Positions 14,648-56,510 of a stretch of 64,000 nt of DNA are shown here, one piece after another. The notes beneath the pieces were generated by a model. It was not told where the DNA came from, ran no database searches, and saw nothing but the letters and a program-made list of their open reading frames with translations. The position numbers and the translations under genes were made by a program. Source of the DNA: Phorcus lineatus (taxonomy: Eukaryota > Mollusca > Gastropoda > Trochida > Trochidae); contig OV121088.1 of the NCBI GenBank assembly GCA_921293015.1, positions 22,481,645 to 22,545,644 on the forward strand, read 5' to 3'. The stretch's first letter is position 1. The number at the start of each line of letters is the position of its first letter.

Positions 14648-15387
14648 ACATACCCCCACTTCAAACTATAGTCTGGCTTTCTTTGTTGGTCTAACCCTCA
14701 AAAAGTTTACTTAAGGATCATGGTTGATAAGTGTATTAAGTTTGGTGAAGATAGCATGTATAGTTTAGGAGATATGCTCCGGACAAAGGACTTGGTCACA
14801 GAGTCACTGTTTTAGTCATGTTTCCATGGAAACCGAAAAAAATAAAAATCTTTTGTTGGTCTAACCCTCAAAAGGCACATCTAGGGATCATGGCTGATAA
14901 GTGTATGAAGTTTGGTGAAGATAGCATGTATAGTTATGAAGATATACTCTGTACAAAGGACTTTGTCACTGTTTAAGTCATGTTTCCATGGAAATCGCAA
15001 AAAATAAAAATCATTTGTTGGTCTAACCCTCAAAAGGCATATCTAGGGATCATGGTTTATAAGTGTATAAAGTTTGATGAAGATAGCATGTATAGTTTAG
15101 GAGATATGCTCCGGACAAAGGACTTGGTCATAGAGTCACTGTTTTAGTCATGTTTCCATGGAAACCGCAAAAAATAAAAATCATTTGTTGGTCTAACCCT
15201 CAAAAGGCACATCTAGGGATCATGGCTGATAAGTGTATGAAGTTTGGTGAAGCTAGCATGTATAGTTTAGGAGATATGCTCCGGACAAAGATTTGTGACG
15301 GACGGACAGACAGACGGACAGACGGACGGACGGATAGAATGAACGCTATATACCCCCGCTTACGCTGTAAGGCGGGGGTATAATTAC
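14648..15387 (+). mobile_element. Core-repeat (pearl/Helentron-like) element C, complete
   Basis: The left end is ATACCCCCACTT. Four core units lie at 14681-14850, 14851-15012, 15013-15182 and a truncated 15183-15295. Each starts TTTGTTGGTCTAACCCTC and carries GATCATGGCTGATAAGTGTA, GAGATATGCTCCGGACAAAG and GTTTCCATGGAAACCG. A (GACG)n/(GACA)n stretch follows at 15297-15335. The terminal hairpin is TATACCCCCGC 15349-15359 paired with GCGGGGGTATA 15372-15382. The element shares the TTTCCATGGAAA, AAAAATAAAAAT and AAAAGGCACATCT modules with element B. Confidence 0.8.
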
Positions 15388-34059: not shown

Positions 34060-34628
34060 AGATCATAGTCATCTTCATCCTCACTACCTGTATCATCATC
34101 ATCTTCATCATCACTACCCAATAATCTTCATCATCACTACCCGTATCATAATCATCTTCATCATCACTACCCGTATCATCTTCATCATCACTACCCGTAA
34201 CATCATCATCTTCATCATCATCACTACAAGGATCATCATCATCTTCATCATCACTACCTGTATCATCATCATCATCTTCTTCATCATCACTACCCGTATC
34301 ATCATCATCTTCATCATCACTACCCTTATCATCATCATCATCACTACCTGTATCATCATCTTCATCACTACCCGTATCATAATCATCTTCATCATCTCTA
34401 CCCATATCATCTTCATCATCACTACCCGTATCATAATCATCTTCATCATCGCTAACTGTATCATCATCTTCATCATCGCTACCCGTATCATCTTCATCAT
34501 CACTACTCGTATCATAATCATCTTCATCATCACTACCCGTATCATCATCATCACTACCCGTATCATCTTCATCATCACTACCCGTATCATAATCATCTTC
34601 ATCATCATGATCATCATCACTACTACTA
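34060..34628 (-). repeat. (GAT/GAA)n-type minisatellite, encodes Asp/Glu/Gly/Ser repeats in one frame
   Basis: On the minus strand, units of about 21-33 bp such as GGTAGTGATGATGAAGATGA, often ending with TATGATACG or GATACG, repeat some 18 times. One minus-strand frame from ATG at 34723 reads a short unique N-terminus (QAGLPFYNESYN region) and then many G-S-D-D-E-D-D blocks. A likely acceptor TTTTCAG lies just upstream (34736-34742). The frame shifts within the array near 34120; the other frame would close at a TAG (34056-34058) after more D/E-rich blocks. Every frame of this array is open over long distances, so openness is not evidence of coding. It may be an exon of an acidic protein or only a microsatellite. 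Confidence 0.6.
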
Positions 34629-34742: not shown

Positions 34743-36274
34743 TCTTTATGTGAAGAAAGAATGTGCTACCTTTAATTCTTGTTTAAATGAACATTGTGTA
34801 TACTCAATGACACATGACTGCAAAGAGAATGTCAAACTACCAAAGAAATGAAAGAAGACTTCAACATTTATAAAACAATTCTTAGAGATTAATTGAGTGC
34901 TGAAACAGAAATTTGATTATCAGTGAGATTCATGGTGGACAAATGGTACCATTAGTTGTGAATGGACAATAACATGTACCAGCTGACCATCATGTAGCAA
35001 CTGTTGTAAGAGTGATGAGGAAAGCATACAAGAGATAAGAACATCCTACCAGATATGATTTGGAGATAAAGAATTCAGAGACCTGCATGTTGTGGTTAAA
35101 CAATGTCTCCTATAGAACAATTACCTCCATATTGCAGGTAAAGTTCCAAAAATGAAAGGATAAAAACGACTATCGTTCTGATTCAATAGACAGAAACCAG
35201 TCCACTTGAGGTTTTATTGCTTATTAACAGACTGGTAGCACACCTTTCATCCTCGCCTCAACGATTCTTGCAATATCATCTGTTGCTAGTTCCAGATACA
35301 GCAGAAAACTTAACTTGGAAATAAAAGATTCTGTCTCCACAAAAATTTAAAATGAGGAAGAGTGTTTTTTCTATGGACCATTTTTTAATGGAAATGAAAG
35401 TTCCCTTTTTTTAAATAAAGGAGACATTTTTTTCAATTATGGATATTTTTGGTTTGGCTTTGATCTAATGGGATATTAGCAAAGGGGATTTTGTCTCAGA
35501 GCTAGTGACCTTGGTTACAAAAGGGCTGCATATATGGGTATATGTCCCGATATTTTGTAAGCACAAGTAATGCACAGCCAAATAGTCCTATACCTTTAAC
35601 GAGCTGTGAGGAGGCACCTGAACTACCTCTCACAGGTATGCCTCACCTGCTGAAAACACAATCAGGTGTGCTGCTAATTGCTTTCCTAACGACTTAATCA
35701 TAGGTAGAATAACTGTCAACACCAAATAAGTGTTTGATTGCTTGAGGGGAGGATAGTTTTGTTTACAAGTTTATGTAATTAAGTAGATATTTATGCAATG
35801 CTAATTTCTGACAGGTGACAATTTCATCCTAAACAAAAATATTTTGGAAGGATTTTTGTGACACTCTGGGGGCGGTTGACTTGTTTTATGACATTTCATG
35901 TGCATAACCGTGATATATTTTTGTCAGGACTCAGTCTTCTCTCCTTGTAACAATTACACATACAAAGTCATGAAAGTTTTAAGTGTGAAGACATTATGTA
36001 ACATAAACCACATGAAAAGAAAATTTTTAAAAAACATTGAAGATATTAAACTTTATTGCATCATAGAACGACTACATCTCACGTGGCAAAATTATACTAG
36101 CTATTAATTCTACAGCTTATGAAACCAATTTACCACCAACTTGGCAGCCCAAACTTTAATGTGCTTCGTTACTTATTCTTTTACAAATTCCTCTATATCT
36201 ATTCACCCGCTCATAAGAAAGACGGAATTAGGATTTCTATTTTCATGGCATGTTCACTCAGCATGCTTTATGTC
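34743..36274. other. Intergenic, E-box cluster only
   Basis: Apart from the E-box/TAACGAGC module at 35.6 kb nothing is recognised. Confidence 0.5.
35595..35668 (+). promoter_or_regulatory. E-box cluster with an ACCTTTAACGAGCT motif
   Basis: ACCTTTAACGAGCT is followed within 75 bp by CACCTG, ACAGGTA, CACCTG and CAGGTG, all CAGGT-type E-boxes. A near-identical arrangement lies at 39.9 kb. It is about 3.7 kb upstream of the signal-peptide exon. Confidence 0.35.
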
Positions 36275-36544
36275 TTTATCAACAGTGGTGTTGTTGTGTA
36301 CATCTATATCAACAGTGGTGTTGTTGAGTACATCTTTATCAACAGTGGTGTTGTTGAGTACATCTTTATCAACAGTGGTGTTGTTGAGTACATCTTTATC
36401 AACAGTGGTGTTGTTGAGTACATCTTTATCAACAGTGGTGTTGTTGAGTACATCTTTATCAACAGTGGTGTTGTTGAGTACATCTTTATCAACAGTGGTG
36501 TTGTTGAGTACATCTTTATCAACAGTGGTGTTGTTGAGTACATC
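36275..36544 (+). repeat. Near-perfect 9 x 30 bp minisatellite
   Basis: Nine units of exactly 30 bp start TTTATCAACAGTGG and end GAGTACATC. Units 3-9 are identical; unit 1 has GTGTAC for GAGTAC and unit 2 begins TATATC. Because the unit length is a multiple of three and lacks stops in three of the frames, open frames on both strands cross it; they are artefacts of the repeat. Confidence 0.92.
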
Positions 36545-38369
36545 TTGGAAACCTTAATATGATATGTGCGAGAAAATGGAACATATCAATGTTTTGTCTT
36601 TTTCATTGCAGTTGTGCAGAAATAGATGCTAATTTGTATGCCTTGATATAAAAACTTTTAAAGTGACATAACAGACCTATTTGATCCTTCAAATAAATTG
36701 TATATATCATCAAGATTTACTTCTAATGATTAATCAAACAAGCAATGATTGATTTAACGGAAAAATGCAAAAACAAATTGAAAAGATTTAAAATATAAAA
36801 ATAATTCTTTTTAAATGTAAATTGAGATTTTTTTTTATTTCCATAGAATGGACAGACAGACAGAAAGTTTACCTGAGATAGTTAAATGATAAAAAATGAC
36901 TTTTAAAATGATGAAAAAATCCAAATGGAGGACTATTATAGTCTAGAAATGATGGTAGGAAGGAAATCTAACTTGGTTCAGATGATAAGCAGCCTGAAAG
37001 TGAGGCAATCTGAATCAGAGTTGTTTCGTCAATGTAAGAAAAAAATATATATATATAAAACTTTTAACAGGTAGACTATCAAATTAAGTCAGTGCTGAGG
37101 GTCTTTCTTTAACACTGCTTAAAGAAACTGGAATGAAAGAAGAATTTCACTTTTATATCTTGACAATTTCGTAATCTTAACAATGATACACAGAAAAAAA
37201 TTCCGAGCCAGGTGTTAAATCAGTTAAGACCACCAGTACGGAACAATAACATCTCGTAACTTCTTGCCGCAGAGAGATAAACTACTTTGTACCTCCCAAA
37301 CTATATTACATTACCTTCTAACACGTATACTTTCACCAACACGAATAGGTAGATAAGAAATTAAGAAGGAAAAGAAAAATACTATGTACAACCTAAGTCT
37401 TTACCACAAAAGCACTTAAGATGCCGAGTGATATATCTATTAGCAAACCAATCTGAGCGTCCATTTTACAGGAATCATAACCCATTAACAAAGGTATTAA
37501 CCATGAACTGGAAACAATATCAACATTTTTAGACTCAGTGAGTAAAGGGTTAAGGATACATTTTCTGAGAATCATTTATTAAAGTGAAACACGCAGAAAA
37601 AGTACAAAGTTTTGGTTGATATGGAATTAAAATGTATAAGTTAAATTTTTTTCATATAGACTCTGGGAGTATTTTGACTTTGTTTTAGCATTTTTAAAAT
37701 ATGTTGTGTTGTTCATTTCATAAAACCTACTCCATACTTTGTTTGAAACTTTTAAAACATTATAATGAGCCTTTGCAAATCTTCCTCTTTCAAAGAGTTT
37801 TATCTCCCGAATTTATTTGAAAATATTATACAAAGTAACTTTTAAGAAGAGGTAATAACAAAAGGTTTCCTAAAAGAGCTGCACAAATGGTCAAAAGAAA
37901 GAGAGAATTTATATTGTATGAAATCAATAACGAAATTTTGTTACAATCACAACTGCATATCAGAGATTTGATTCATAGTGATTTGTACTTTTCAAAAATG
38001 TTTCAATTCATTCACAGAAATTCCTCTTAACAATAGCATTGGACTCCTTTTAATCTATTGGTAATAAAATATAGCAAACCTTCAATGCAAATATATTTAG
38101 TAACAATTTTTTAACAAACCCTCTCTATCCTTAAGTTCAAAATATGTTCACATTTAACCTCAAATCAATTACCAATCGGGGATAGTTTATCCATATAAGA
38201 AAAGCGGTTTATAAAATTCATTATTGGAATTTTGCTTTCAACAGGGGTAGATTTAAGATCGACAATGAAGCGTCTATATCATAGATCAGATTTGGAGCCT
38301 AGCCAAGGAGAACTATAGTGGAAGTATGTTGTGCATTGACACTTTTAAAAGCCAAGCGTGTGCAGGGCC
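36545..38369. other. Intergenic upstream of the Dae4-like gene
   Basis: AT-rich, with a short GACA repeat near 36850 and an AT microsatellite near 37045. G+C content rises from about 38340 towards the promoter. No gene recognised. Confidence 0.5.
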
Positions 38370-39265: not shown

Positions 39266-39331
39266 ATGTTTGGATACATACTACCACTCCAGCTTCTCCT
39301 ACTTGGAGGGGTGCTTTCAAGCACTGAACCG
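39266..39331 (+). CDS. Coding exon 1: start codon and signal peptide
   Basis: The ATG at 39266 has A at -3 (ACAAGATGT). It encodes 22 residues beginning MFGYILPLQLLLLGGVLSS, a typical signal peptide: short N-region, Leu-rich core, small residues near the likely cleavage site around Ser18-Thr20. The exon ends in phase 0 at a donor CCG|GTAAGG. The frame stays open past the donor until 39442, but that downstream peptide resembles nothing and the donor fits the consensus well. Confidence 0.82.
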
Positions 39332-42300
39332 GTAAGGAATTTCAAATTTTATTTCAGGCCATTCATTCAGTGGGTCTGCTCAGCCGATGCAACAGAGGAA
39401 TTTAAGTTGACAAAGCCTATACTTAAGTACATCAGGATGTAGGTTATAATGTATAGCACATAGATCTTATCTAAACTTGACAACCTCTATGCACAATAGC
39501 CCAACACATTAAATTGTTTATTCACTGCTTGAAAACATATTTCATCTTAGATGATTTAAAAAAATGTTTTGATAACTTTTAAAATAAGTGTGGGATAAAT
39601 AAAATTTATTCTTGAATAAGAATCATGAATAAGACCTAAAACAAGCATTGAGATTTCTTTAAAAACATTTTTGTATAAGGTTTGAAACTAAAACTCTTAT
39701 CAAAATGGATCTTAACTTCATCTTATTAGAATATTTACCAGAAAGGTTCAATTTATAGTCTTTTGTGTACAAATTTAAGAAATCACTTTGATTTCACAAT
39801 GTATTCTCTCTAAAAGTTTTAAATTTCATGTTTTTCTCCTCTTCTCACATTTTATCACCAAGATGAATGAAAAGGCAACTCGACCTATTTCAAGTTTGTC
39901 TACCTGTACCTACCTTTAACGAGCTATCTGCGACAGGTGAACTCACCTGGGGTTATCAATAACGATAATAGGTGGCAGATAAGTAGGGGACAGTGAATCT
40001 ACTTACATACATATAGCCTAAGGTCAGTCAGTGTCCAGGGGCTGGACACTTGGACGTGCAAATTCTAAATTACGTGTCTGAATCCACACAACAGAGCACT
40101 GAATGGAGATCAAAGATCATGCTAGGTAGGAAATAATCAATGATGAATTAGGAATAATTCTCATCTTGTTGAAAAGTAAATCTTCTTCTTATTCCTAAAT
40201 TGTAAGTCATGGATAAGTAAATGACAATAACTCTCAACACAAAGCTATTTCTTTTATAAATTGAAATTTGAAATAATTTGACTATCAATTGAAATAAAAT
40301 CTTTAAAAATTCAAAGAAAATGGAAAAACAATTAAAACAACTTTTGCTCATGAATCAGAATTATTTCTTCAAATCGAACAATGAAATTGTAATTTCAATC
40401 AAATCGTTCTCAAACTCGTTAAAGTTCCTCCCCTAAAGCAGTGGTTCAAAAAATATTGACAATCAATCAAACTCAAAGTATTGAAGCACCTGCATCAATA
40501 ATTAACAAGTCTTTGTTGAAACAGAAAATTAATTAAAGATTATGCAGAACAATAATTAAAATTCAGTAATTTCATGACTGGTAACAATTAGAATTCCAGC
40601 CTAGATTCCCAGACAAAGAGATCAATACACTCAAGCTGCCGCCTCAAGAACTGTTCTCACGACTTCCCTTAGTACACAGAGTACACTTACTAGTCCACCT
40701 TAAATTTCCACACTTTACAGCAATCAATTTACATTAGAGGATAAAAGCTTCACCTCAGTGACTTTCATGTTTGTCTTTTAAATAGCAGGTCTGTTAAGAG
40801 GAAACCTTTTTTTGGTTAGTCCATCATTGAAATTTCATATTCATGGTTACATCTTTGTCATGTCAGAGTACACCATTGACTATGAGTACACCATTCTATT
40901 TTAATCTTTTATTCTTTATTTAACTCTACATGTTTTTCTATGTGAGAAAACTTTGTATTATTTTTCATTAACACTCGAGTAAAATATCTACCTGTGTTGA
41001 CAAATTACTTACTCTTAGCTTGGTATCCATTAGCACACTTTTGATTTTCAAAGTACACATCAGCTTTTAAATACACCTTAAGCTTTGAAACCTTTAGTTG
41101 ACCGCTTTGCTACTAGTCATATTAATAACTCATATATCCTTGATCCTTGCACTTGAGAAGTTATTATGATAATTTATGCAAATGTGATATTGACTCACTC
41201 AACAAAGAACTTGGTTGCCAAAGTGATTTGAGGTTTTGAGATAATACAACAATGGATTTAGAGAACACTTTATCAAGACGTCAAATTTGCTGTGTTATGT
41301 TAATCTTTTACTCGTTTCTTGTCAACTGTTGAGTTTATTCATGAAATGACATGAATCACATCTCAATTTTTTTTTTATCAATTTTCAATAAATCTTCAAT
41401 ATTCTTGAAGAGTGCCTTTTTGCTTTCCTATTTAAAGTAGTTATGATTTTAAACTAAAAAAACTTTCTTGTCATCAAAGATAATATATTACAATAAGATT
41501 TAACATGTTAAATCAATTCAAGCCTAAAATTGCTTTACCAGTCTCTGTCATTATAAGTCACCATTCAATTATGAAAAAATTAATACTGATCATACTTTCC
41601 AACACTCTCAACAAAAAGCAGACCTTTTGTTAAGTTTTAAAAAAGACATCAATTCAGGCCATAAGCACAAAGGGTTAAGACACCCTTGGATTTTGACATA
41701 AAGGAACATAAGAAAACTTGGGAATTACAGAATTATAAATCAGAAATTGTTTGTACATGATAAATGGTTATGTGACAAAAAGATTCCCTCCTTGCTTTAT
41801 GTTCAAAGCATAGACTTATTTGTCAAGATCGAGAGGACAAACTTAGACAAAGGTGCCAGTTAGAGATGACCAGAATCGTGTGATTATTCCACCAATCACT
41901 GTCCACCTCCAAATGCCAGCTTCAGAAAGAGGCTGGGGTAACTGATATCCATTGGCTACCTGACACACTTATCTTGCTTAAAGCTGCTTGCTCTGAAAAT
42001 ACGGACAGTATCAAATAAGTCATGTCATCTTACGGGAAGTAATGTGGTAGTTTAAAAAACCCGAACTGAATCCCCTCACACCTGAGGCAGAGCCCACAAA
42101 GAGGCTGAAAACCCATTGGGCAAGACCAGAAGGATTTCCAAAGCCTTTCCAATTACAAGCAGACGTCCCTTTTACTGTATTTACCTAACTACCAAAGTAG
42201 TTCATGAGGGCGATATGCGCTGTTTGGAAAGCCGTTTTCTGTATAACACTCTCCAGATAGCCAACATATTTGGTCCATTCTTATCGGGGTATATTCAGCT

Positions 42301-45300
42301 TAAGCAGAGAGTGAAAGGACCCTTTCCTGCTTGTTCAAATAAGAACAGTGTGCTTGTCGGAGAGGTGGCCACCTTTGGTTTATATAATATACAAGCCGGT
42401 TTGTGTCTATACGATCGTATTGGAGCTGGCTCGTGCTCACGGTGTAACCAAGCGTGGCACAAGTCTGTCTGTCGACCCTCCCGCTTTCACTCTGTGCATT
42501 CATTGTGCAATCTTCACAAAGCTGTATGGCAGCTAATAGTTTACCCAAAGTAACCCCTTTTGTGGGTATCCGTGCAGTACCCAAACCTTTGGTTGCGAAG
42601 GAAACTGGCCTATAAATCAAGAGAACGTATTTGTTCAATGTTGTGTGCCTTGTCCCTATTGGGCCTGTTTATTCACTGGTCCTCGAACCCTTTTTCATCT
42701 AGAAGGGTTTTGGCCCCTGTTGTACCCGGGTAACATCACCCCATATTTAAACTATTTAGGTCAAACTTACTTTAAGATAATGCAACAATAAAATCCTTAT
42801 CAATGTAATCTCCTTGTACATAAATACCTAAGAGAGAACAGTTTATTTGACAGATAGATTTAGTAATATATTAACTTTATTTTATATCTATTGACTTTAA
42901 TTTCAACCAACTTGGAATTCAAAAGTTTGTATTACATTGGAGGTTAATGATCATAATCTCTTTTTAAAATATAACCAATAACTTAGTATCAAGTGAATAT
43001 TTCAAATATGGAATTTATCAATTATCGAACAATAAGTCAATTAAGATTACATGACAAAACACACAAGCACTATGACAAATATTCCAGTATTTCACAAAGA
43101 CCTCATGCCTGGACAAACAATCAGGAGCAATTTCATCAAATTAAATACAAGGATATACAATGACTCATAAATAGGGACACAGGCAAGTAATTACAGATCA
43201 CAGAGTGTAAATTGCAATTCCTTTCTCCCGCTAAGCTCTGTTGTTATTTGAGTCATATTAGAGCATTGTTTGCTAATTGCTCAGTAATGTTTATTGTGGG
43301 CTAGTTTACACCTAGGATCGTCCTGGGATTACTTCTTAAATGTAGGTAGGGAAACACTACTTCAGCCGGAAATTACTTTTCCCCATTTTAGATAACTTGT
43401 CTTTCCGGAGAGACAGACTATATCAACTGGCACACCCACAAAAGATTTACTGACCGTGATCAAAGAGAAACTATTACTTGTTCAGTTCAAGCCTTTCATT
43501 TGTAATTTACCTGGTATACCTGAGAACAAAGGCTCGTTAGTAAAGGTGTGTTGCCAAATATCACCTGAGAAGGGACGATATTTGATAGGGTTTTGAGAAA
43601 GAAATTTATGCATCAACATGAATGAAGTTATCAAAACAAAACAAAAATGTTCAACTTATTAAATTGCATGGTTTGCTAAAAAATACTTTTCAAGATTTTT
43701 CTCCCAAAATATTCAGATTTACCATCTCAACCGGAAATTTAAAAGTTAAGATTGAAATTTGAAATAGAGGTTCTTATAATTTTGAATAGTCTCCCACCTG
43801 TGCCAATTGGATTCCAATTTACTTAGCATGTAAGGGGGGAAACTGAAATGGGCCACCCATGTTATACCTAGAATTTTCAAAGGGCATCTGACAAAATGTT
43901 CCAAAAGAAATCGGCCCAAATTTAATCAAATCCTCCTTTCACCCTTCAGTGCATCTAACAATATGCAGCTATTTGTTGGCCAGCTTGCATCATTTCACAC
44001 ACTAACTCTCAAAGCTATGGCTTGTCATAAACATTATGCAATAAGGCTATTTTCGGTTTCTAAGGGAACAATTTTGTCATGGCAATTCCCCATAAAACTT
44101 TATGGCACATCCGGCTTGGACAATGGAATACACAGGACCTGCGTGAACCTCTTGAGTCCATGCAGTGATGTCCTCTGTCCTGTGGCTGGTCATTCTCCTT
44201 AGTCCTCAGGGGATGACAGACAATGTACATTGATGAGTAGAGAAGAGACATACCCTATACATCACACTTTCCAACCGTATAGATTCATTTTCTCCCTTAC
44301 TCAAATGAGTAAAAGCTCCTTTTTTTTCATCATTTAGGTTGAAGTTTGTGGAGTGCCTTTTTGCACAGGAAACACTAATGAACAAATTCATAATCAGGGA
44401 TGGGGCTTTATATCCGTAACAAAATGTTCCTCAAATTTCTTGTTCATTTTGATCTTTAGCACATTTATGCATTACTGGAATCAGAATTGGAATAATTAGA
44501 CAAGAGAAATATTTTATGTCATACTGGTTTGGGTACATAGGTCTAACATTCTCTTTAGTCACAACTAGGTAACTTTAGCAGATGGAATTCACAACAGCCT
44601 CCTAAGTTTGATTGATAAGTATTTCGATCCTGACTTTACTCATAATTTCATTCATACAGCCATTTCAGAAGAGATAATCTCTTCTTCTTTTCCCCCCAAT
44701 TTGGATGTAACTTTGCCCTTTCCTGCCCCGTTTGACCGTGACCCGCCCACCTCTATTGAAGACATGACCCCGTGGGAGCATCCCTGTCAACACAATCTGA
44801 CCCCTGGCCTCTTAGGACCGTCAATAGGGCCACAGTCACCTCATTTTCTCCCCTGAACATCTTTAGAATGACATCTGACCCAGTGCCATTCAACTCCTCT
44901 ACATACAAAACAATCTCTATTCAGCTCGGGACTCGAGGTCTGTTCAGGATTTCTCGAAGTTCAAAACAAGGCCCAATGAGGCATACAGCACAATGGCCAC
45001 GATCCTTCTAATCATGAGATGTAACAAAGCGAGGGACAGTTACTCCTGAGATCTTTATCTCACAGCCGCCCATCTGCCGGACACTTCCTCCCCGATCTTT
45101 TAATCCAATCGTGAGAGTAAACCGAGTTCCTATCAGTGATCAGAATCCTCTGTAATCTCTGCCTATTAATTTTACATCAGTCGTGAGACCTCTCTAGTCC
45201 TCACATTCACATCCATATCCCATAATGCATCCCTTCCTCATAAGGATTTTGTCATTGCAAGAGACAGAATTTTAAAGTAATCCTATACATTAGTCATTCC

Positions 45301-48300
45301 TTTCAAGAATTGTTTCTAGTTCTTTACTTTTCATCTTAATCACATGTAAATTTTTATTGAAAATTTGAACAAGCGATTGATAAAATAAACAAATTGACAA
45401 ATAATCCCAAACACTTGTCATTCGTTCATTGTCATTGCAATCCCAGATAATCAAAGAATTAGTATGTTTATCCTCGAAACATTTCTTCACATTCCTCCAA
45501 TAGGACTAACATGTCACGCCCAAAAGCACTTTTGAAACAATGCTTTACAAAATGGCTGTCGGAAAATGTCCATCTGTGAAAACGAACACGTTCTAATCAG
45601 GCTTTTAATAAGATTGTCAAATATTTACACTTGTTGGCGAAGCAAGAATTAGTCCATGTCAAGTCTGAAACAGCTTCGCAGCAAACAGTCATGTCAGGTC
45701 GCAACAATGTCAGACGCATCACAGCAAACATCGAACACAACGGCATGCCGTAGTTAAATAAACAAATTTGTAGCAGTGAGACATTCATTTTTATTGACTC
45801 AAACATCTTTTCTCAAATCTATCTATAAACACTGTAACTTTGAGAGATCTATTCTGTTAAAGTAAGTATTAAATCTTACAGATTTTTATATGAATAATAT
45901 CATTCTTAACATTTATTTCAATCAATATTTTTGCATTTATATATGTCAAATGTCATTTAATATCTAAATAGATTTAACCCTAGTGTTGCTGAATAACATT
46001 CTGACCAACTTATCCCGTGGATGAATTTTAATCTGTCCGCTCGCTGTCGTTATTCCTTGATAGTTATGTTATGGTGACAATTAACCTAAAAGACTAATGC
46101 ACCCATCAAAAGTGACAAATAATATTATCCATAAAGAGTGGACAACCCCAAAAATGTCAAGCGTCCACAAGGAATAAAGAACAAAAATACAGCTTTTGAC
46201 AATGACCAATAATATTTAGTTTACCGAGTCTGCAAATCTGTTATCAACCAAGGTGACCGTTCAATTTTCCAAACAATGGAAAAACAAACATTGCAGGGAA
46301 ATCTGGGGCGCTACCACTGTCTTGATTAGAGGTTTCACACAACCTCACCCTCCCCACCATAACCCAGATAATCTGATCCATGATGTTGGGGTCACCTCAA
46401 CGAAAATATGGGTCAATCTTTGTTTTTTATCATCTCTATAGAGCATATTTTCCTATCAAAACATTTATGATTCAGGGTCCCGTTGCACAGAACACCAAGT
46501 TAAATCACTAAGGTAGCCTTAGTGCATTGTTAATTGATTGGACTAAGGTTAATCTTAGTGTTGATTGTGACCCCCAGGCAAATATAACACAAATTCTGAC
46601 ATTATATTTATCGTCATAAGATTGTTTTCTTCTATCGGAATTTTTTTTTTCCATAAATAAAGGTCAATGTTTTGTCACTGAATAACAAAGAAATTTATTC
46701 AACTAGAACAATTCTAAATCACAATATTATATAAATGGTTTTTTTATTTTCGTTATTTGTTATATGTCAAATTCAAAAGATCATGCATTTCACTGCAAAA
46801 TATGCAAAATTGAATTCTACTACAATTTTTTTTATTCATAAAAAAGTATTCAGATTTCTGATCAATAAAAGAGTTTTGATTGGTAGGTGTATAGATAACC
46901 TTGGGCAGGATAATAAACCTATCGTAAAGATGATAGATTTGTAGTCCATTCATTATCTACTTAGTGAGTCATAAAATCCTGTCTTAATCAATCAATGCCA
47001 ATACATAAAAACATATAGCAACTCATCTCATGATGTCGACATCATTGCTTTTCATTTTATAGTCACCCTAAGCAAAAACTTTGTTTATTATTATTTCATG
47101 AGGAAATTTTACAATTATGCAAGCAATTACTAAAATGATTAAACAAATTTTTAATGATGAAAGCAGAACAAATATTAAAAGTTATCACTCGTTTTGATTT
47201 TAAAAGGAACACTAAAAATTGGAGCTTTGATACTTTGACTAATTTACTAATGATTTGGGCTTAATCTAAATTCCTAATATTGAATTCAAATGACTTCAAA
47301 ATGCTTCAATGTCTAAGATGCACCAGTAAGGACTGTATGAAAAATGTGAGCATAATTGTGACTAGTCAGCAAACAATCTTTTGAGCAATAAAATGTGTCA
47401 CAGTCAAACGCACAAAATCTATTCAACGAGTCAGACTTATATAAGTAACATTTTTTGCATTCTTTATGCAAGTCACAAAATAAGCAGAAATTTGCATACA
47501 AACATAGGTCAACAATACATTGGCGCTACAAACGATCGCTTAACTACATCCGTCTATACACAATCACCCATCATGCATTGTTCTCTGCAATCAACAACGT
47601 CAGTGTCATGACCTGTTGTTATTTACATAAAGACAGCCGCTCTTTGTTGTGTACACTTCAAATACAACTTACACAGCTAGATGCATCATCCGCTTAAAAA
47701 CACAACTGGCAAACTTTAAAATCTCTGCATTTGACATCAAAGTGGCGCTAGGCCTTTACAAATAATGAATGTTTTCTGACGTGTTTTATAAACATCTCCA
47801 ATGCATTCTTTGTTTACCGTATTGTCTGTGCCTAACTTCAAATTCTGATACAAGTTTTTTAATTAAAACTTGAATTGTATACCAATAAAAATTCAAAGAC
47901 ATTCCTGTATACATTAGTGTTAAAATTGATATTAAAATAGGCACATATGTGTAAAATATTGTCACTGATACAATCAAAATGAGAGTGATTTGCTTGTTGC
48001 GACTCCCATTGTGGTGTGACTATCTACGGTATGACATAATACCTTCACATTGACCTGCAAAACTCATGCAAATCATTTTATGCTACAAATTATCCTGAGA
48101 CGTTTGAAAAAGCTTTGACCCACATTTCAACAGACATTTCACTTGAATTTAATTTAAGTGCACAAGAAATGTTGCATCATATAAATGCTCAAAAGAAAGA
48201 AAACAAATTTTTACGGAGAGTTAGGATTGTTTAAAAATACAGTCCCCATAACAAGGCATTTTGAATACCATTTAAAAACCATTTCGATTATAAAACAACA

Positions 48301-51300
48301 AGCAACAAAAACATGATTACAAATGGCAAACCAAACTTGCCGTGGTTAAATTATTCTAAATTTGTATTGAAATATTGTCAAGACAATTTATTACGATTAA
48401 TTTGGATTATAAACAACAAGTGAAGCAAAAAGTGGCACCTGAGTGTTTCATACACGTATTGATTCATGAAATAAAGTAAACAAATCGAGCAAAGAAACGT
48501 CACGTGGTTTGGAAACAGCTGGCCCTGACTTTACTACCTTCATTTACGAAGAGCATCTATGCAGACACCACAAAAGAAGGAGCGAAACATAAAAGATTGC
48601 AGTCGAATATGGGGCAATAAATCTTTTGGCCCGTCTAAATGTTATACCAAGTTTATTATCTGCTATTATGTGGCGTGTCACTAAGTACAATTTGCTTTGA
48701 AGACAAATATACAGAGCTGGATTTGATAGATAACCTCATCTATGACCTTCTATTGCAACCTTGCATACCAGTCTTGTCACACTTATTCAACAAAAGTAAC
48801 AAACAAAATAAACTTGATCATCAAAATCCTTTAGTACTTAATACAACATTTGACTAATCTTTGTAAAAAAAAAACAACCAATCATTTTATCGATAGTGAA
48901 TAATGGCATTACATATTTTCAACAAAAAATAAGGACCACGCCAATTTTCAGTATTTCGATATTCTATGGATTAAACAATGCCCTGGCCCCTATATGATGC
49001 TTAAATATTGAATAGTGGGATGGTCCTTAACTTTTGTTGTTGAGTATATATTTATTTTGCTTTAAGGTATAATTTTGAAGCTGTTTGTTACTGGTTTATA
49101 CCTTGTGGTTCATGACATGGTGTAAACAATATTATTCCCTAACTAAAGATATTCATGTATCAATCTTTCTCTTCCCTAATTCTCTATTTTTTTGGGGGTC
49201 ACTCTTTCATGGTGATTTTCTAATTACCTGATCTATTTCAAGATTAAATTAATAAATAATTCAACAAATCTATAACCCAGACAGGTATTCAATAAATTGA
49301 TTCTAATCATATTACATTCATTACAAACTTTCACATCTTATCAAAAGGTCAAAATGAAACAGGTCAGGGTTTCCCAGCTAGATATCCTGTTAAAACAATT
49401 CTCTTGTCACCAAATATCAATCTTGTCAGCTATATGCATCAAATCAAATAAAAGCCAATCCTAACTTAAAGCTCAAGTTAATCCTAGTTACATGGAAATC
49501 TAATTACGATTCCATAAACGCCCTCACAGTGGGGTGTCAAATAGATGTGTTTCCAATAGAAAATAAAATCAACAAGGATTAAAGATCACAATGAACCAAT
49601 CAAGAAATAATAAAAGCATATATCATAAACATTTCTTAACCATGACCTGTCACATCATTCCTTTTTGTTGAAACAAAAAACACACAAAACATGTCTGCAA
49701 TTGTGTAAGGAATTTCATCCCTGTAAGCCTCAACATAGAATGTTTTCACATATCAAAATGATCCCCGTGAATTTGATTGATACAGAGGCTTTCTTTCTTT
49801 CGAGTCAAAGGTCAATGAATAGATTGAAAAGAGACTACATGACATTTGCTGGGAACAAGAGGCATAAAAGAGGGCCAATAGCCAACGGCTAGTCTGGGAA
49901 AGTTTTATTGACAGGGGTCAGACTGTCTAGCGATAACTTTTTCTCGTTAATAAAACCTCTTCTTGTTTTTTTACAACTAACGGCCTGAAGTGCATCAGAT
50001 ATAAGCCCCAGAGGACAGCATCTGTCACCTTGGGTCCACAATGGATGCATTTCAATCAAAACATTACATTCATTATCCTCCTCACAGGTGAAATGAATGA
50101 AAATTGAGATGGTTGATCAGCTGAGAGAATCAACAAGCGACATCAAAAGTTATGTGTACATGACAAACAAACTTTAAGAAAAGCATTTGAGCAAACAAAA
50201 CATGTCTTGATTGCCTTCCTTTATGAGTATATTTACAACGAAAACATTTTCATCAAATATCTCTCTGCTTGAACCCTGCTGAGAATTAGACAGGTTCTAC
50301 TGAACTTGAATCATTAAGACCTTATTTCTCATCAAACAAACATTCTGTATGAACAAAGTGATTGTGTTCAAAATATAATATCCGATTTTGCATTTCGTGT
50401 CCTCATACACATAAACATCAGGTGGAAATAAACCATACATCAAAAAAAAAATAAAAATGCACATTTTTGATGAGTTCATGAAATAAAATTCTCAAAAGCT
50501 GCATGGAACTATAAAACTTAAAACAAGACACGCATAATTTTGGTTTACATTTTGCACAAAAGTTAACCAAAGACTGAAGCACCATATTTCAACTTTCAAA
50601 GGGTGAAAGTGTAATGTGAACTGGCAAGTGACAGGGAAGCTAGCTTGAGGCAATATGATGTCACAAGCAACTTATGTCCGCCTTACAAAACTTGATGTTG
50701 AGGTCATTTGTCTCTGTAACGGATGGGCCACACAACCTGACTCTTGTGTGAGAAACTAAATATATTCATATATTCTGACCGATCGAATCTTTAAAGTCTC
50801 TGTGATCACAGACTGACGCTTGAAATTGACTTGAAATGTTTGTTGTCTTGTTTTTGATGATATATTCTTCTTATCCCAATTTTACGACCATTATGTTTTA
50901 TTCATGAAATAACTTCATGAGGAAGAAAGGCTCTCAATTCTACTAGTTTTGAGTCCATAAATATGTCTCTGTGAAAGACAGATCATAAATAAACTCACTA
51001 AATTTCTTCAAAATTAATTCTCAGTGGAAAACTTGAAAATAGAAGTCTCTCTAAAATTCTAACAATTAGAAAATGTTATATTTAATCATCTGAAATTCAC
51101 ATTACAAGTTGAATGACTTTCTTATCTAATGGCAGGAAGTCTTCATCAAGTGATGATATTTAAGTTGACAAATAATCTCTATAAATGAGTAGAGGCAATA
51201 AATGACACAAAGCACAGACTACTAAAAGTGAAATTGTCATCACTTAGTTAACCCCTATGCTGCCAAAACCACTAACTTGGTCCGACAAGTAGATTATGAA

Positions 51301-54300
51301 CATCTCTTAAACACTGTCCCCTCCTATTGAGTTGTATGCCTAATTTCTCTGACTGATTTGAAATCTGTCGCACCTGTCAATAACAAACACAAGTGGTCAT
51401 CTCAATGACCAAGCTTTATGGACTGCGTCCACTTAAAGATCCATGATATATTGGATCAGTCCCTAAGTAGTACACTTACAGGTAAAGTAGTGCACCTGAA
51501 ATTGCTATAGTGGACGTAAGTGTAAAGCAATACTACGGATGTCAAAAATAGACAATCAATTTCCTCCTTTATGATTTGAACCAATGGAAAAGATTGTTTG
51601 CTCCCTTTGGTCAAGACTTTTATATCAATGTACACATCTATTATTTATGGGCTTCGAGATGAAATACAACCTTTCTGGATAATGTATGCTTGGGTCAAGA
51701 TGCATTGTTCCTGCAAAAATGACAAATGGATCGCTGTGATTGAATCAACAATTCCTCAGATTTTTCTGGAGAAGAGTTGAGAATGAGGTTGAGATTTGTT
51801 TTCTTTATAACAATTGAAAAGAAATGGTTCCTGAGAAGAAAAAGAGAGTGAAAACATATCTTTTTGTGTTATTGAATAGATTTAGACATAAATAAAACAC
51901 GCTTTTCCCTAGATTAATGAAAAGAAGTTTGGAGGCATTCTTTTACAAATGCACAAGAGGACCTTTGACTATACATTGCTAGAGAAATAAGCCTCTGTAC
52001 TAATTCTGTACACATTGCTTTAAAATAATCATCATCAGATCATGAAAAGAAATTTAGCCACTTAGGTAGAGATTTATTGTCCCAATGTGCCATACCCACT
52101 AGACCTTGTCTCACACTTTTGCTGTGGTTTGTTTGAATGCTTAACCTGTCTCTCCAGCTACTTATACTGATAAGTGTTTCACTGACCATTGTCCTCAGGA
52201 GGTCAACAGTGCAGCCGGTCATGACAAACAACAACTAGCCATATATAAATGTCCAGTTCAGATTCATATATTCATGTCCAGAGATGACCGTTTAATGATC
52301 AGAAGACCATGGTGTTGATTTCAACAGACCTGCAGGCGGAATGCATGTCACGCTTTTTATCATGCTGATCCTTCTTGTATCAGCATGGGAACCATCCCTA
52401 AATGATTTATATACAAGGCTTTCATAGTGCAACTGTGCTTAGAATAATAAAGAGATACTGGAGATAGAGAGGTTTTGGGTTTCAATATAAAAGCATTTCG
52501 AAGGTCAATGAACTAATGTATATGTATAACTTTGGACACTGATTTGTCGAGAGTTTAGAATCCTATACAAGATTTATAAGATATGGAGAACTCAGTTTTC
52601 AACTTAAAATACGTTTTGTCATTCATCAATATCATTATCTGCACGTGAAACAAAGGTGTTTTAGAGGTTTTTAACGTTGAAATAATTCATACATTATCAA
52701 GCACTTGACATAATTCAAAATGACAGGCAGTCATGAAAAAACTTCTATAAACTATTCTCCAAAAACATTAATCTCATTCCTTATCGAATACTGTTTGTTC
52801 ATGCAGCAATTGAAGAAAGTTATCATTGGACACAAAAAGTTATATCAATTATTAGGTATTATTTCTTCCAATCAACATTGTTCAATTATAATCATACAAA
52901 TTTACTCTAGTTGATGTTTACTATTTGTTCTTCAATCAATGTCACTTATCCACAATTACGCTCAATTACACGGGTTACACAACAATGTATGGTATGCAGG
53001 TCTATCCACCAGTAATGGTAAACCTGTGTCCAACATCAGCTCTACACTCTGCTCACAAACTCTCGTCTAAAATGTGAATCATGTTGAATTTCTTGCTAAA
53101 GAAGTTTGTATTTGAAGTTCTCATGTTTTCCTTAGCGTTGAAGGATCGCGACTTCTTCACCAGTGACACAGAGATATGTCATGTGACCTTTCCTGAAATT
53201 CCCATGCTCTTAGTTAGTACGCTCCTATATAACATGGACTCGGACTGATAGCACAGATTAACCCTACAGACTTCATCCATTATCTAAAAGTCATCTTGAT
53301 TTCTTATACAATACTAATTCATGATCACTAGTTATTGCTATTAATCTCCAACGGTATAAATCTAGTGTAATGAATTAGTTTTGTTTGTTATCTCATTTCG
53401 TGAGTAGGTTATTGTTTAATATCGCTTATTTAACAGCGACTAATTCAATAAGAGCAATAATTCATATTATTGATGATAAAGTAATGTTACATTTGTTCAC
53501 CATTTAAATGATATTTATTTTTAATACATTTCAACTTTTATGAAAAGCATTTCTCTGATATCACCTTATTTTCTTTGAAAATGTGATATTTTGTGCTTAT
53601 ATGGTCATAAAATGTAGCATTTTTTTACTGTTTCAAAGTAGTATAAGTTATTCATATTATTAATTTCTCAGGGTTACTTTTTCTTACGATGCATTACCCA
53701 ATATTGCTATGCAGGGGTTAACATTCTGCAAAATAAACTTCTTAATCTCATAGGATTTACGTATCTAGATAACTCGCATACCGATATCACGATAAAGCAA
53801 GAATGTCTTGTGACTCACAATGGACAAACAGAACTACTATTAACATAACATATATAAACTATATTATAATTCATTTCTCGATAATATCATAACACAATAC
53901 AATTTGGAAAACTACAAAATCACAAGTTTTTATGATTAAATCCATGCATGCTAATCTTTCGTTTTGATATCAAATGCTTTAATCTTAAATTATCAGCCCG
54001 AGTTGTATTTGACGAAAATATTAACAAAACAAATATCTTGATCCTAAATCAAACTATGTGCAAGCCAAAGGCACCAACTATTTAACATGTAGTACAGGGA
54101 CATTATCGTATCAAAATTCTTAACAAGATATCATCTAACAAGATGCATGGTTCACCTATAGACATTGAGCCGGTAGGCATACACGATCGGAATCAATTAC
54201 AACTCAAACTAGGCTAAACTGTATCAAATTAAATAATTCAATATTCATAATGACATAAATAAACAAAAGCATAGGTCTAACGCATGAAGGTGCATGAAGT

Positions 54301-55606
54301 TATGGTATCATGAAAAGCTTCCTTCAATAATAATATACTGCAAGTCCACTCTTGCAAAAACACTGTGTGACTAAGAGATTTAATTAAGATCAAAGGGATA
54401 TTAATGGATTAAAAATACCCTGAATTTCATTAGCACCACTCTTGTTTGAATCTTCTGAAGCATACATATACATATATCTGGCAACTCTTTTGGCTTGCAG
54501 CAATGAGAGTGTTAACAATAGATATTTGTCAAACTATAAACTTATTTTTTTGGGGTTCTATTGCAGTTAATCAGTCTGTAGACTGATTTCATATTTGTTT
54601 TTCAATTGGAATTTTTTTAATAAATGTACTTGAAATTTACTTTATATTATTAATTCCAGATTCCATTACCATCCTTCCAAAAGTTGAAGTCAAACTATCC
54701 GGGCTACTGGAATTTCGGAGGACGATTCCACAATCACCAACTTCTAAAGATGATTGGTACCCATAGCAATCTGTTGCTTCACGATACAAGCGCCTTACGA
54801 CTTTCCTATGCTTTCAATAAGATCGGAGGACCTCATTCCCTTGGCAAGAATTTGATTCGCTTATCTAAATATGGAACTGATAGTGTACCCGGAAAGGATG
54901 CCTACCAGTACATTTATCACCCAATTGCATATGGACCTTTCATGGCCGACAAATATGGGTACCCAACTGTGTCAAAGTTACATCAAATGGACCCAATTGA
55001 TACGAAGAAGAATTTTTGGGGAAAACAAGGTATCCTCCGTGTGATTACTTACACAAAAAAGTTGAACCGACCAAAAGGTCACGTTGCATTGTGGAATTGT
55101 GATCATTTCCACCAATCAAAAGACTGGATTGCAGGGCATACACTTATCACAGTGGAATTCTGGGAATCGCCAGGTAAAGACTTTTTTCATTTCTTTTTTT
55201 TCATTTGACTTCAATTCAAGGTCTAATAATATTTTGAAATCTGCCTGATAATTCTAAAGAGTTTTCAGTTTTTTATAATATATAAAAATATGTTACAAAA
55301 TATATCATTTAGGACAAAAAATAAGTGTAAAAACTTATTTTACCTGCCAAGAAACTAAAACCAGAAAAGCAGCCAAATATTGAATGACAGTCCTCATGAA
55401 ATAATAATTAATAAAATGTTATTTATTTCCCAGATTCAGACTGTACTAAGAAAGAGAAGCATCTACCATCTCCAGAGAGTTTGACACAAATACCATCACC
55501 ACCGGCAAACTTCAAAACACTGATACGACATAAATCATGGAGGAAGAAATTTCTCCTGAAGTTTTTCGAGGAGAAAATGGAGGATGGGGAACCCTACCAT
55601 TGGTGA
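39266..55606 (+). CDS. Secreted Tae4-like (domesticated amidase effector, Dae4-type) protein, three coding exons
   Basis: Joined exons 39266-39331, 54660-55173 and 55434-55606 give an uninterrupted 250-residue frame. Residues 1-22 are a signal peptide with a Leu-rich core, so the product should be secreted. Residues about 34-193 resemble the type VI secretion amidase effector 4 family, bacterial enzymes that cleave the D-Glu/meso-diaminopimelate bond of peptidoglycan. I recognise the motif around residues 64-71 (D-T-S-A-L-R-L-S, then YAFN), the GKQGILRV strand (143-150) and GHVALWN (162-168) with the catalytic-type His163; Asp170 or Asp177 could be the third residue. The family nucleophile is Cys, but position 66 is Ser (AGC, 54789-54791), so hydrolysis may be lost or altered. 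A 57-residue tail is Pro/Ser-rich then cationic. Animal homologues of tae genes are known to act in innate immunity against bacteria; that role here is inference. Splice phases 0 and 1 agree on both sides. Function is assigned by motif reading only. Confidence 0.82.
39898..39956 (+). promoter_or_regulatory. E-box cluster with an ACCTTTAACGAGCT motif, intron 1
   Basis: TACCTGTACCTACCTTTAAC is followed by GAGCT, then ACAGGTGAACTCACCTG, which places two CAGGTG boxes in inverted orientation. It shares the 14-base motif with the 35.6-kb cluster. The position about 570 bp into intron 1 suits an intronic enhancer; this is inference. Confidence 0.35.
46506..46570. repeat. CACTAAGG/CCTTAGTG palindromic repeat fragment
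   Basis: CACTAAGG (46506-46513) and CCTTAGTG (46517-46524) form a perfect hairpin. A second pair-like segment, GACTAAGGTTAATCTTAGTG, follows about 25 bp later. The preceding GGGTCCCGTTGCACAGAAC is reminiscent of a dispersed animal repeat, probably a MITE remnant. Located in intron 1. Confidence 0.45.
48912..49050. mobile_element. Foldback (MITE-like) element in intron 1
   Basis: The left arm from about 48912 (TTTTCAACAAAAAATAAGGA, CCACGCC) and the right arm to 49050 (GGTCCTTAACTTTTGTTG, TTGAG) are inverted copies with small differences. The match continues inward through TCAGTATTT against AAATATTGAA. Nearly the whole 140 bp would fold into one long imperfect hairpin. There is no coding capacity. 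Target-site duplication was not identified. Confidence 0.55.
54660..55173 (+). CDS. Coding exon 2: the complete Tae4-like amidase domain
   Basis: It follows a pyrimidine-containing acceptor (TTAATTCCAG|ATTCC) and ends at CAG|GTAAAG. It encodes residues 23-193 and the first base of codon 194. The frame is phase 0 at its start, matching exon 1, and phase 1 at its end, matching exon 3. Almost the whole recognised domain sits in this one exon. The exon is richer in G+C and more codon-like than the flanking AT-rich intron sequence. A TTG at 54684 can be mistaken for a start codon; it is an internal Leu. Confidence 0.88.
55174..55433 (+). other. Intron 2 of the Dae4-like gene (260 bp)
   Basis: GTAAAG at the 5' end, CCCAG at the 3' end, strongly AT-rich with a T-rich run at the donor side. 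It splits codon 194 after its first base. Confidence 0.8.
55434..55606 (+). CDS. Coding exon 3: C-terminal tail and stop
   Basis: Acceptor TTTATTTCCCAG|ATTCAG. The split codon G|AT gives Asp194; the frame then runs 56 more codons to TGA at 55604-55606. The tail begins with an acidic/basic mix holding Cys197, continues with a Pro/Ser-rich linker (about 204-217), and ends with a cationic and hydrophobic segment (about 225-241, including RKKFLLKFF) and an acidic, aromatic last stretch ending in Trp. I know no bacterial Tae4 counterpart to this tail, so it is probably a eukaryotic addition. Confidence 0.8.
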
Positions 55607-56510
55607 AACTCTTCCAGTATCTTGTGCTGCCATAAACTCTACCTGAATTAACTTCAGACAATTTCTGGTCAAACACCCTAACTGTTGCCATATATACTTT
55701 TCCTGTGACTTTTTGTAAACCACAAGCATTTATATCCCGACCCGAAGACTGAACGTGAATTGAATATCATCAATTGTGTGTTTTTTGCATGTAACTACCA
55801 CAGACAAAATCTGGGTCTTTTGTTGATGAAGAACAAAAAAATAAACGAACTGAAGAATTTTTCGAGTGCCTTATTCATGCAAATGAATATATGCAAATGA
55901 TTTCCATTTGTGGGAAGACGTACAAACACGGATATCATGGAATGTGAAATAAGATGACAGCATTCTCTGGATTTGTACTGTACAAACAAGACTAATCAAG
56001 ATATACTTGTGAACTATGTGCTGATTTTTTTTCGTTCGACGATTTGTAATGTTTTTCGATTTGACAAGTTTGTATTGTTTTTGTTGATTTAAGCTTTAAT
56101 TACTTGATTGAAAGCTGCATGATGTGGCTGAATGCCAAAAGTGTGTTTCAGTATTAATTTATAATGATTTGCATGTTTGTGTCATAACAAAGTCAAAAGC
56201 ATGAAATGTTTCGATGTGTGTCGTGAGCAAGCTTGTGTGACTGTTTTTATAATTGTTACAATTAATGCCAAAATCAGTTTAATTTCTAATGATGATGATG
56301 ATGATGAACATAATTAATTTACTAGTGAACATTTACAATATATTTACAAACGATAACTGTTTGTTAAACAAAGGCTAATTATAGTATGAATGAATTATGC
56401 ATATGACATGTTTGTGATTGGTGCTAAGTATGAGATGTTTCAGTATCACAAATTCATCACAAATTCAATTTGTAACCAATTAAATTCATCATCTGAAAAT
56501 ACAAAATAAA
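55607..56510 (+). other. 3' UTR of the Dae4-like gene with two poly(A) signals
   Basis: After the TGA there are canonical AATAAA hexamers at 55840-55845 and 56505-56510, giving possible UTRs of about 0.25 and 0.9 kb. A short (GAT)n run lies near 56290. No transcript evidence is available to choose between the sites. Confidence 0.5.

What the first reader, a model, noticed from the sequence alone, without database searches (positions are those of the whole stretch)
39266..55606. A bacterial type VI secretion amidase-effector (Tae4) domain inside an intron-containing, signal-peptide-bearing animal gene
Seen: two GT-AG introns with matching phases join a signal-peptide exon to an exon whose translation carries Tae4-type motifs (D-T-S-A-L-R-L-S, GKQGILRV, GHVALWN). 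Known: tae genes were transferred to several eukaryotes (dae genes) and tick Dae2 degrades bacterial cell wall. Inference: this is a Dae4-type antibacterial or microbiota-controlling gene of a mollusc-like animal.
Basis: partly seen in the sequence, partly recalled or inferred. Interest (0 to 1): 0.9.

Follow-up and report, generated by a model that had tools for sequence, protein, structure and literature searches.

The report
Snail's borrowed bacterial toxin, nucleophile missing
A mollusc gene for a probably secreted protein is built on a cell-wall-cutting toxin domain of bacteria, but the amino acid that does the cutting is replaced in it and in every relative that could be checked, which suggests that the weapon became something else, perhaps a sensor.

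Summary
A three-exon gene (39266-39331, 54660-55173, 55434-55606, +) encodes 250 aa with a signal-peptide-like start and a Tae4 domain (Pfam PF14113, E 9.9e-9, 35.8 bits, cut-off 27). A 250-aa Haliotis asinina protein matches it throughout. It lies on a chromosome-size contig of a 958-Mb genome; one copy was found.

Of 119 animal rows with a residue there: Ser 105, Thr 12, Ala 2, Cys 0. Bacterial set: Cys in 123 of 125. The bacterial His+2 Asp is also gone; His is invariant. Named relatives are gastropods, bivalves, cephalopods, a chiton and one annelid.

Best reading: a toxin-derived secreted pseudo-amidase, strongly conserved, with a basic Arg/His tail, probably binding peptidoglycan or a related ligand without cutting it. 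Loss of the canonical nucleophile is well supported by sequence; ligand, secretion and role are inferred. Main rivals: an endogenous-ligand binder, or a hydroxyl-nucleophile enzyme. No structure could be predicted.

The parts
39266..39331 (+). Exon 1: start codon and signal-peptide-like N-terminus (MFGYILPLQLLLLGGVLSSTEP), ends in phase 0
   Evidence: GT donor after 39331; best 21-residue match in the window to the N-terminus of Haliotis asinina P0001, 0 of 2000 shuffles as good
39332..54659 (+). Intron 1, 15.3 kb, GT-AG
54660..55173 (+). Exon 2: Tae4-like domain
   Evidence: Pfam PF14113 E 9.9e-9; 89% identical to H. asinina over the domain
54789..54791 (+). Codon of Ser66, the position of the bacterial catalytic Cys
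   Evidence: Aligned to Cys by profile alignment, hhalign and MAFFT; Ser, Thr or Ala and never Cys in 119 animal rows
55080..55082 (+). Codon of His163, the retained catalytic His (GHVALW)
   Evidence: His in 117 of 117 animal rows with a residue
55086..55088 (+). Codon of Ala165 at His+2, where most bacterial Tae4 of the set have the triad Asp
   Evidence: Asp in 121 of 125 bacterial rows; Ala 98, Val 16, Gly 2, Leu 1 of 117 animal rows
55098..55100 (+). Codon of Cys169, invariant in animals, possible disulfide partner of Cys197
   Evidence: Cys in 117 of 117 animal rows; the disulfide is inferred
55174..55433 (+). Intron 2, 260 bases, GT-AG, phase 1
   Evidence: four of five apparently exon-only frames of unnamed relatives (P0068, P0087, P0099, P0100; not P0088) run to the same SPG donor
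55434..55606 (+). Exon 3: Cys197 (SPDSDC), basic C-terminal tail, stop codon
   Evidence: Genome match to P0001 residues 191-250, 49% identity, E 3.3e-10; Cys in 77 of 89 animal rows with a residue there
55526..55567 (+). Basic tail motif RHKSWRKKFLLKFF
   Evidence: Arg-His-rich motif in 61 of 67 animal tails, shuffle mean 17.4, maximum 26 of 67
55840..55845 (+). AATAAA, polyadenylation-signal-like
   Evidence: sequence; no transcript

Best explanation
The gene descends from a bacterial type VI amidase effector (Tae4) acquired by an ancestor of molluscs and at least one annelid; that direction of transfer is inferred. It gained a signal peptide, introns and a basic Arg/His-rich tail, and lost the catalytic Cys, probably before molluscs diversified (inferred from the tree). 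Shown by sequence: the domain, its broad spread in molluscs, the replacement of the nucleophile by Ser/Thr (Ala in the annelid and one unnamed protein), the retained His and the changed neighbours. Inferred: the product is secreted, folds like Tae4, and binds a peptide ligand, most likely the peptidoglycan stem peptide, in the old substrate groove without hydrolysing it, while the cationic tail adds avidity to bacterial surfaces. It would then act as a soluble sensor, opsonin or scavenger of cell-wall fragments, as non-catalytic PGRPs do in insects and vertebrates (recalled).
For: Tae4 hit. Cys absent from 119 of 119 animal rows with a residue there; Cys present in 123 of 125 bacterial rows, the other two being a Cys-free Agrobacterium Tae4 (P0149 'TaeMX', which I take to be engineered) and a chimeric fragment (P0160). 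Profile-profile alignment places Ser on Cys (97.1% probability, E 5.2e-11). Cys-to-Ala kills activity in bacterial Tae4 enzymes. Position -2: Asp in 118 of 119 animal rows, Asn in 122 of 125 bacterial rows. His+2: Asp in 121 of 125 bacterial rows, none in 117 animal rows. Listed relatives are 55-89% identical to exon 2, so the domain is under strong constraint and not decaying. The tree recovers the caenogastropod, heterobranch, patellogastropod and cephalopod rows as supported groups, as expected of vertical descent. Tail: 63 of 67 net positive, Arg-His motif in 61 of 67.
Against: The catalytic His is invariant, and every row but the annelid and P0124 keeps a hydroxyl residue (Ser or Thr) at the nucleophile site, which a pure binding protein would not obviously need. 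No structure, binding or expression data. Slow evolution and low copy number are unusual for an immune receptor and fit an endogenous ligand as well. Bivalve rows do not form one clade in the tree. The domain before the tail is itself net positive (median +5), so charge alone does not set the tail apart, and shuffles ignore relatedness. 15 of 135 hits and 87 of 207 were not listed, so a Cys-bearing animal relative could have been missed.
Confidence: 0.5

Rival explanations
1. An enzyme with a swapped nucleophile: Ser/Thr in place of Cys, perhaps helped by the new Asp two residues before it, with the old His. It would hydrolyse or condense a substrate by hydroxyl chemistry.
For: His invariant (117 of 117); 117 of 119 rows carry a hydroxyl at the site (Ser 105, Thr 12); Asp at -2 in 118 of 119 against Asn in 122 of 125 bacterial rows. 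Sponge silicatein, a Cys-to-Ser papain-fold enzyme, is a precedent (recalled).
Against: The two relatives outside the mollusc clade have Ala there, so hydroxyl is not universal; His+2 Asp is lost; Ser rarely works in a Cys-protease site (general knowledge).
Confidence: 0.2
2. A non-immune secreted protein that binds an endogenous ligand, for instance in matrix, gut or development; the toxin fold serves only as a scaffold.
For: Slow evolution, one copy found in this genome and largely orderly inheritance suit a housekeeping partner; the cationic tail could bind acidic glycans.
Against: The old active-site His and the motif residues Arg and Ser are conserved in every row that has them, which points to use of the ancestral groove. 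Presence in octopus and slugs as well as shelled molluscs argues against a shell role.
Confidence: 0.25
3. A Dae4 working as an ordinary cell-wall amidase, as first proposed.
For: Tae4 domain, secretion-signal-like start, precedent of tick Dae2 (PMC11347951, passages).
Against: Nucleophile absent from all 119 animal rows with a residue there; Cys-to-Ala inactivates bacterial Tae4.
Confidence: 0.04
4. Contamination or pseudogene.
For: None found.
Against: Chromosome-size contig; introns and open frame; relatives in many molluscs.
Confidence: 0.01

Closest known systems
Bacterial Tae4 (PF14113), e.g. EcTae4 4hfk, StTae4 4j30, AtTae4
   Same: Domain above Pfam cut-off, N-terminal F-x2-L-x2-NY stretch, R and S of the xRxS motif, GH motif, FW near the end
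   Different: Cys, His+2 Asp and Asn(-2) replaced; the CxxxC pair not kept; signal-peptide-like start, introns and a basic tail added
Eukaryotic dae genes, tick Dae2 (PMC11347951, passages; Chou et al. 2015 recalled, not held)
   Same: Bacterial amidase-effector gene in an animal, with a secretion signal
   Different: Tick Dae2 is reported antibacterial; this family is of Tae4 type and lacks the nucleophile
Giardia muris Tae4 (PMC7641422, passages)
   Same: Tae4 in a eukaryote, reported as laterally acquired
   Different: Reported as a recent acquisition in one protist; this one is spread through Mollusca. Its catalytic residues were not examined here
Non-catalytic peptidoglycan recognition proteins (recalled)
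   Same: An amidase fold that lost a catalytic Cys and became a receptor, as proposed here
   Different: Unrelated fold and zinc chemistry; analogy only

Membership tests
Tae4 (PF14113) | Domain match above the curated cut-off | tested here: met
   35.8 bits against 27; 32 of 32 members hit at E <= 0.01
Tae4 (PF14113) | Catalytic Cys in N-T-C-A-x-R-x-S | tested here: not met
   Ser, Thr or Ala in 119 of 119 animal rows with a residue (8 rows gapped); Cys in 123 of 125 bacterial rows
Tae4 (PF14113) | Catalytic His in the GH motif | tested here: met
   117 of 117 rows with a residue
Tae4 (PF14113) | Third acidic residue, at His+2 or in the CxDxC loop | tested here: inconclusive
   His+2 is Ala, Val, Gly or Leu in 117 animal rows; a conserved Asp at His+14 (113 of 117) might substitute, no model to tell
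Tae4 (PF14113) | C-x3-C pair of bacterial Tae4 | tested here: not met
   Animals have a Cys after LWD/N and another in exon 3, no C-x3-C pair there
Tae4 (PF14113) | Cleaves gamma-D-Glu-mDAP bonds | not testable with these tools
   Needs purified protein
Tae4 (PF14113) | Cognate immunity protein Tai4 beside it | not tested
   No search for Tai4 in the animal genome was made
Domesticated amidase effectors (Dae) | Eukaryotic nuclear gene with introns and a secretion signal | tested here: met
   the signal judged by hydropathy only
Domesticated amidase effectors (Dae) | Nested among bacterial sequences in a tree | tested here: inconclusive
   37 animal rows one clade, 100/98, on a long branch against 28 bacterial rows set as outgroup
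Domesticated amidase effectors (Dae) | Antibacterial hydrolase activity | not testable with these tools
   The missing nucleophile argues against it

The most novel reading that the evidence does not exclude
A bacterial cell-wall toxin acquired before molluscs and annelids split was rebuilt into an enzyme of a new kind: Cys swapped for a Ser/Thr nucleophile with a new Asp beside it, the old His kept, fixed across Mollusca and exported with a cationic tail.
Probability: 0.15. Interest if true: 0.85.

Novelty: new variant of a known kind. Interest (0 to 1): 0.64.

Why it matters
Toxin genes moved from bacteria to animals are usually read as borrowed weapons. Here molluscs of several classes keep such a gene, well conserved, without the residue that made it a weapon. 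That would be a case of a transferred effector turning into a pseudoenzyme under strong selection, testable with one purified protein, and a warning against naming such genes antibacterial from a domain hit alone. My library searches showed no paper on the mollusc family (listings, capped, and one search was too broad to tell much); subscription papers are mostly not held.

Tried and rejected
A single-sequence search of the Protein Data Bank gave nothing; a profile reached four bacterial Tae4 sequences only weakly (E 0.12-0.15), with six unrelated coatomer rows behind them. NCBIfam gave no hit for any of five proteins, the bacterial control included, so it is uninformative. A scan of the prokaryote collection with two animal motifs found no relative: 25 stretches matched a pattern, none was confirmed; those motifs are animal-specific, so this says nothing about bacterial Tae4 at large. 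Ten other long frames of the window had no Pfam hit. A paper sharing the number 162089 with a Lottia protein looks unrelated (listing). A bacterial promoter and terminator scan near exon 3 means nothing for an animal gene. My first regex pass over bacterial loci missed most of them and was replaced. The idea of a shell-matrix role was not pursued, since octopus and slugs have the gene.
Full report
Observation. The spliced frame is 250 codons long with its stop at 55604-55606. Exon 2 hits Pfam Tae4 (PF14113, E 9.9e-9). The nearest relative listed is a Haliotis asinina protein, also 250 aa: 89% identical over the domain and 79% over 234 columns of the whole. Exon 1, 15.3 kb upstream, gives the best match in the window to that protein's first 21 residues; with 12 residues it ranks third. 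In the 958-Mb genome one copy was found, on contig C13 (six-frame searches whose counts are lower bounds).

Family. One protein search listed 114 relatives, and those named by organism are all molluscs; many are unnamed. A profile search gave 135 hits, of which 120 were listed, and added, besides further molluscs, an annelid, Owenia fusiformis (P0125), and an unnamed protein (P0124). Named members include limpets, abalone, land and sea snails, slugs, mussels, oysters, clams, octopus, argonaut and a chiton. Of 69 rows that reach the exon-3 Cys, the window included, 62 have a hydrophobic stretch near the start (mean hydropathy of 12 residues at least 1.7); the seven others include the annelid (hydropathy only, no signal-peptide program). 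Four of five apparently exon-only frames of unnamed relatives run to the same SPG splice donor, which suggests an old intron.

The active site. In bacterial Tae4 the motif is N-T-C-A-x-R-x-S, with the Cys as nucleophile. StTae4 uses Cys44, His126 and Asp137, and alanine at any of the three removes toxicity (PMC3695027, passages). SmTae4 and AtTae4 place the Asp two residues after the His (PMC6277958, passages). I aligned the animal family to bacteria in several ways: a profile against the Enterobacter loci, L008 and L011, hhalign of 43 animal against 17 bacterial rows (97.1%, E 5.2e-11), and MAFFT. All put the animal Ser on the bacterial Cys. All 125 proteins listed plus the window went into the count (127 rows because P0108 gave two). 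Of 119 rows with a residue there, 105 have Ser, 12 Thr, 2 Ala and none Cys; 8 rows are fragments with a gap. The rows are not independent: several may be copies from one species. Three of the 12 Thr rows were in the tree and form a clade of clam paralogues; the other nine are unnamed, and one of them, P0067, has an octopus-like tail, so Thr may have arisen more than once. The two Ala rows are the annelid and P0124.

Bacterial control. The set was 125 rows: 116 of the 120 listed (four dropped for belonging to Brucella or Burkholderia) plus nine from fetched loci. Six of those nine were picked out of their loci by motif strings that contain the Cys, after one search had shown the frames, so they are no independent test. 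Cys is present in 123 rows. The exceptions are a Cys-free Agrobacterium Tae4 named TaeMX (P0149), in which other cysteines are replaced too and which I take to be engineered, and a chimeric fragment without the motif (P0160). The set is not a random sample: one search started from one Rhizobium-like Tae4 (L011), and candidates must share words with it. In a draw of 299 genomes of the phylum, the Enterobacter centre included, 7 had Tae4; all eight of their domains carry the Cys. At His+2 the bacterial rows have Asp in 121 of 125, the animals Ala, Val, Gly or Leu in 117 of 117. At -2 bacteria have Asn in 122 of 125, animals Asp in 118 of 119. His is in 117 of 117 animal rows, and so is a Cys six residues later; the exon-3 Cys is in 77 of 89.

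Descent. A tree of 37 animal rows and 28 bacterial rows (27 or more of them from the set of 125) puts all animals on one side of a branch (100/98), with P0124 and the annelid outside the molluscs (100/99). Within molluscs it recovers the caenogastropod, heterobranch, patellogastropod and cephalopod rows as supported groups and joins the window's gene to Haliotis. Bivalve rows do not form one clade: they fall in several places, with at least two apparent duplications (clams; Pinctada), and several deep mollusc forks are weak. The trait's own column was left in, P0149 was among the bacterial rows, bacteria were set as outgroup, and the program warns of long branches that meet. Transfer from bacteria to an animal ancestor is therefore the simplest reading, not a demonstrated one.

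Tail. After the exon-3 Cys the tail is net basic in 63 of 67 members (median +7; the part before it has median +5), and carries an Arg-His motif (RH, up to three residues, then R, K or H) in 61 of 67, against a shuffle mean of 17.4 and maximum of 26. Two rows, P0108 and P0114, were dropped before this count. A stricter form, a hydrophobic residue before RH, is in 52 of 67 (shuffle maximum 15) and is missing from H. asinina. Related sequences are not independent, so the shuffles overstate the significance. The motif takes forms such as LRHRHWEKKF in snails, HLRHAKHRG in oysters and mussels, and LRHKTHNKHKG in octopus.

Mechanism. Loss of the nucleophile together with strong conservation of what surrounds it is the pattern of a pseudoenzyme in use. 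The simplest function is ligand binding in the old groove, with peptidoglycan stem peptide the first candidate, on a secreted protein whose tail can hold acidic surfaces. The retained His and the Ser/Thr rule inside the mollusc clade leave room for hydroxyl chemistry. Neither can be settled without protein.

Novelty. Tae genes in eukaryotes are known: tick Dae2 (PMC11347951, passages), Giardia muris Tae4 (PMC7641422, passages), and a general mention in PMC5303276 (one passage). The founding paper (Chou et al. 2015) is recalled and not held, and may list a limpet sequence. I saw nothing on the missing Cys in the listings.

Noticed in passing
P0049/P0093, P0053/P0081, P0073/P0120: Clams (Mercenaria, Mactra, Dreissena) carry two copies with near-consecutive gene names and equal longest-contig lengths, so probably neighbours; in Mercenaria and Mactra the second copy has Thr at the nucleophile site.
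   Followed up: partly
34062-34619: Long ATC/CATCAT-type tandem array giving a probably spurious Asp-rich open frame on the minus strand and an Ile-rich one on the plus strand.
   Followed up: no
36273-36546: Tandem array of a 30-base unit, 9.1 copies, 98% matches, open in two plus-strand frames.
   Followed up: no
4015-4692: Nested tandem repeats of 117, 148 and 265 bases holding GTGACCTTGAAAATGACGTCAAGGTCACC, partly palindromic.
   Followed up: no
14682-15290: Tandem array of a 170-base unit, 3.6 copies, satellite-like.
   Followed up: no
L012:934-1869: A bacterial Tae4 domain at the C-terminus of a longer protein that looks Rhs-like (recalled motif), with the Cys present.
   Followed up: no
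P0122 (Pinctada imbricata): A 380-aa member with a longer N-terminal extension that includes a hydrophobic stretch; may be membrane-anchored or a gene-model artefact.
   Followed up: no
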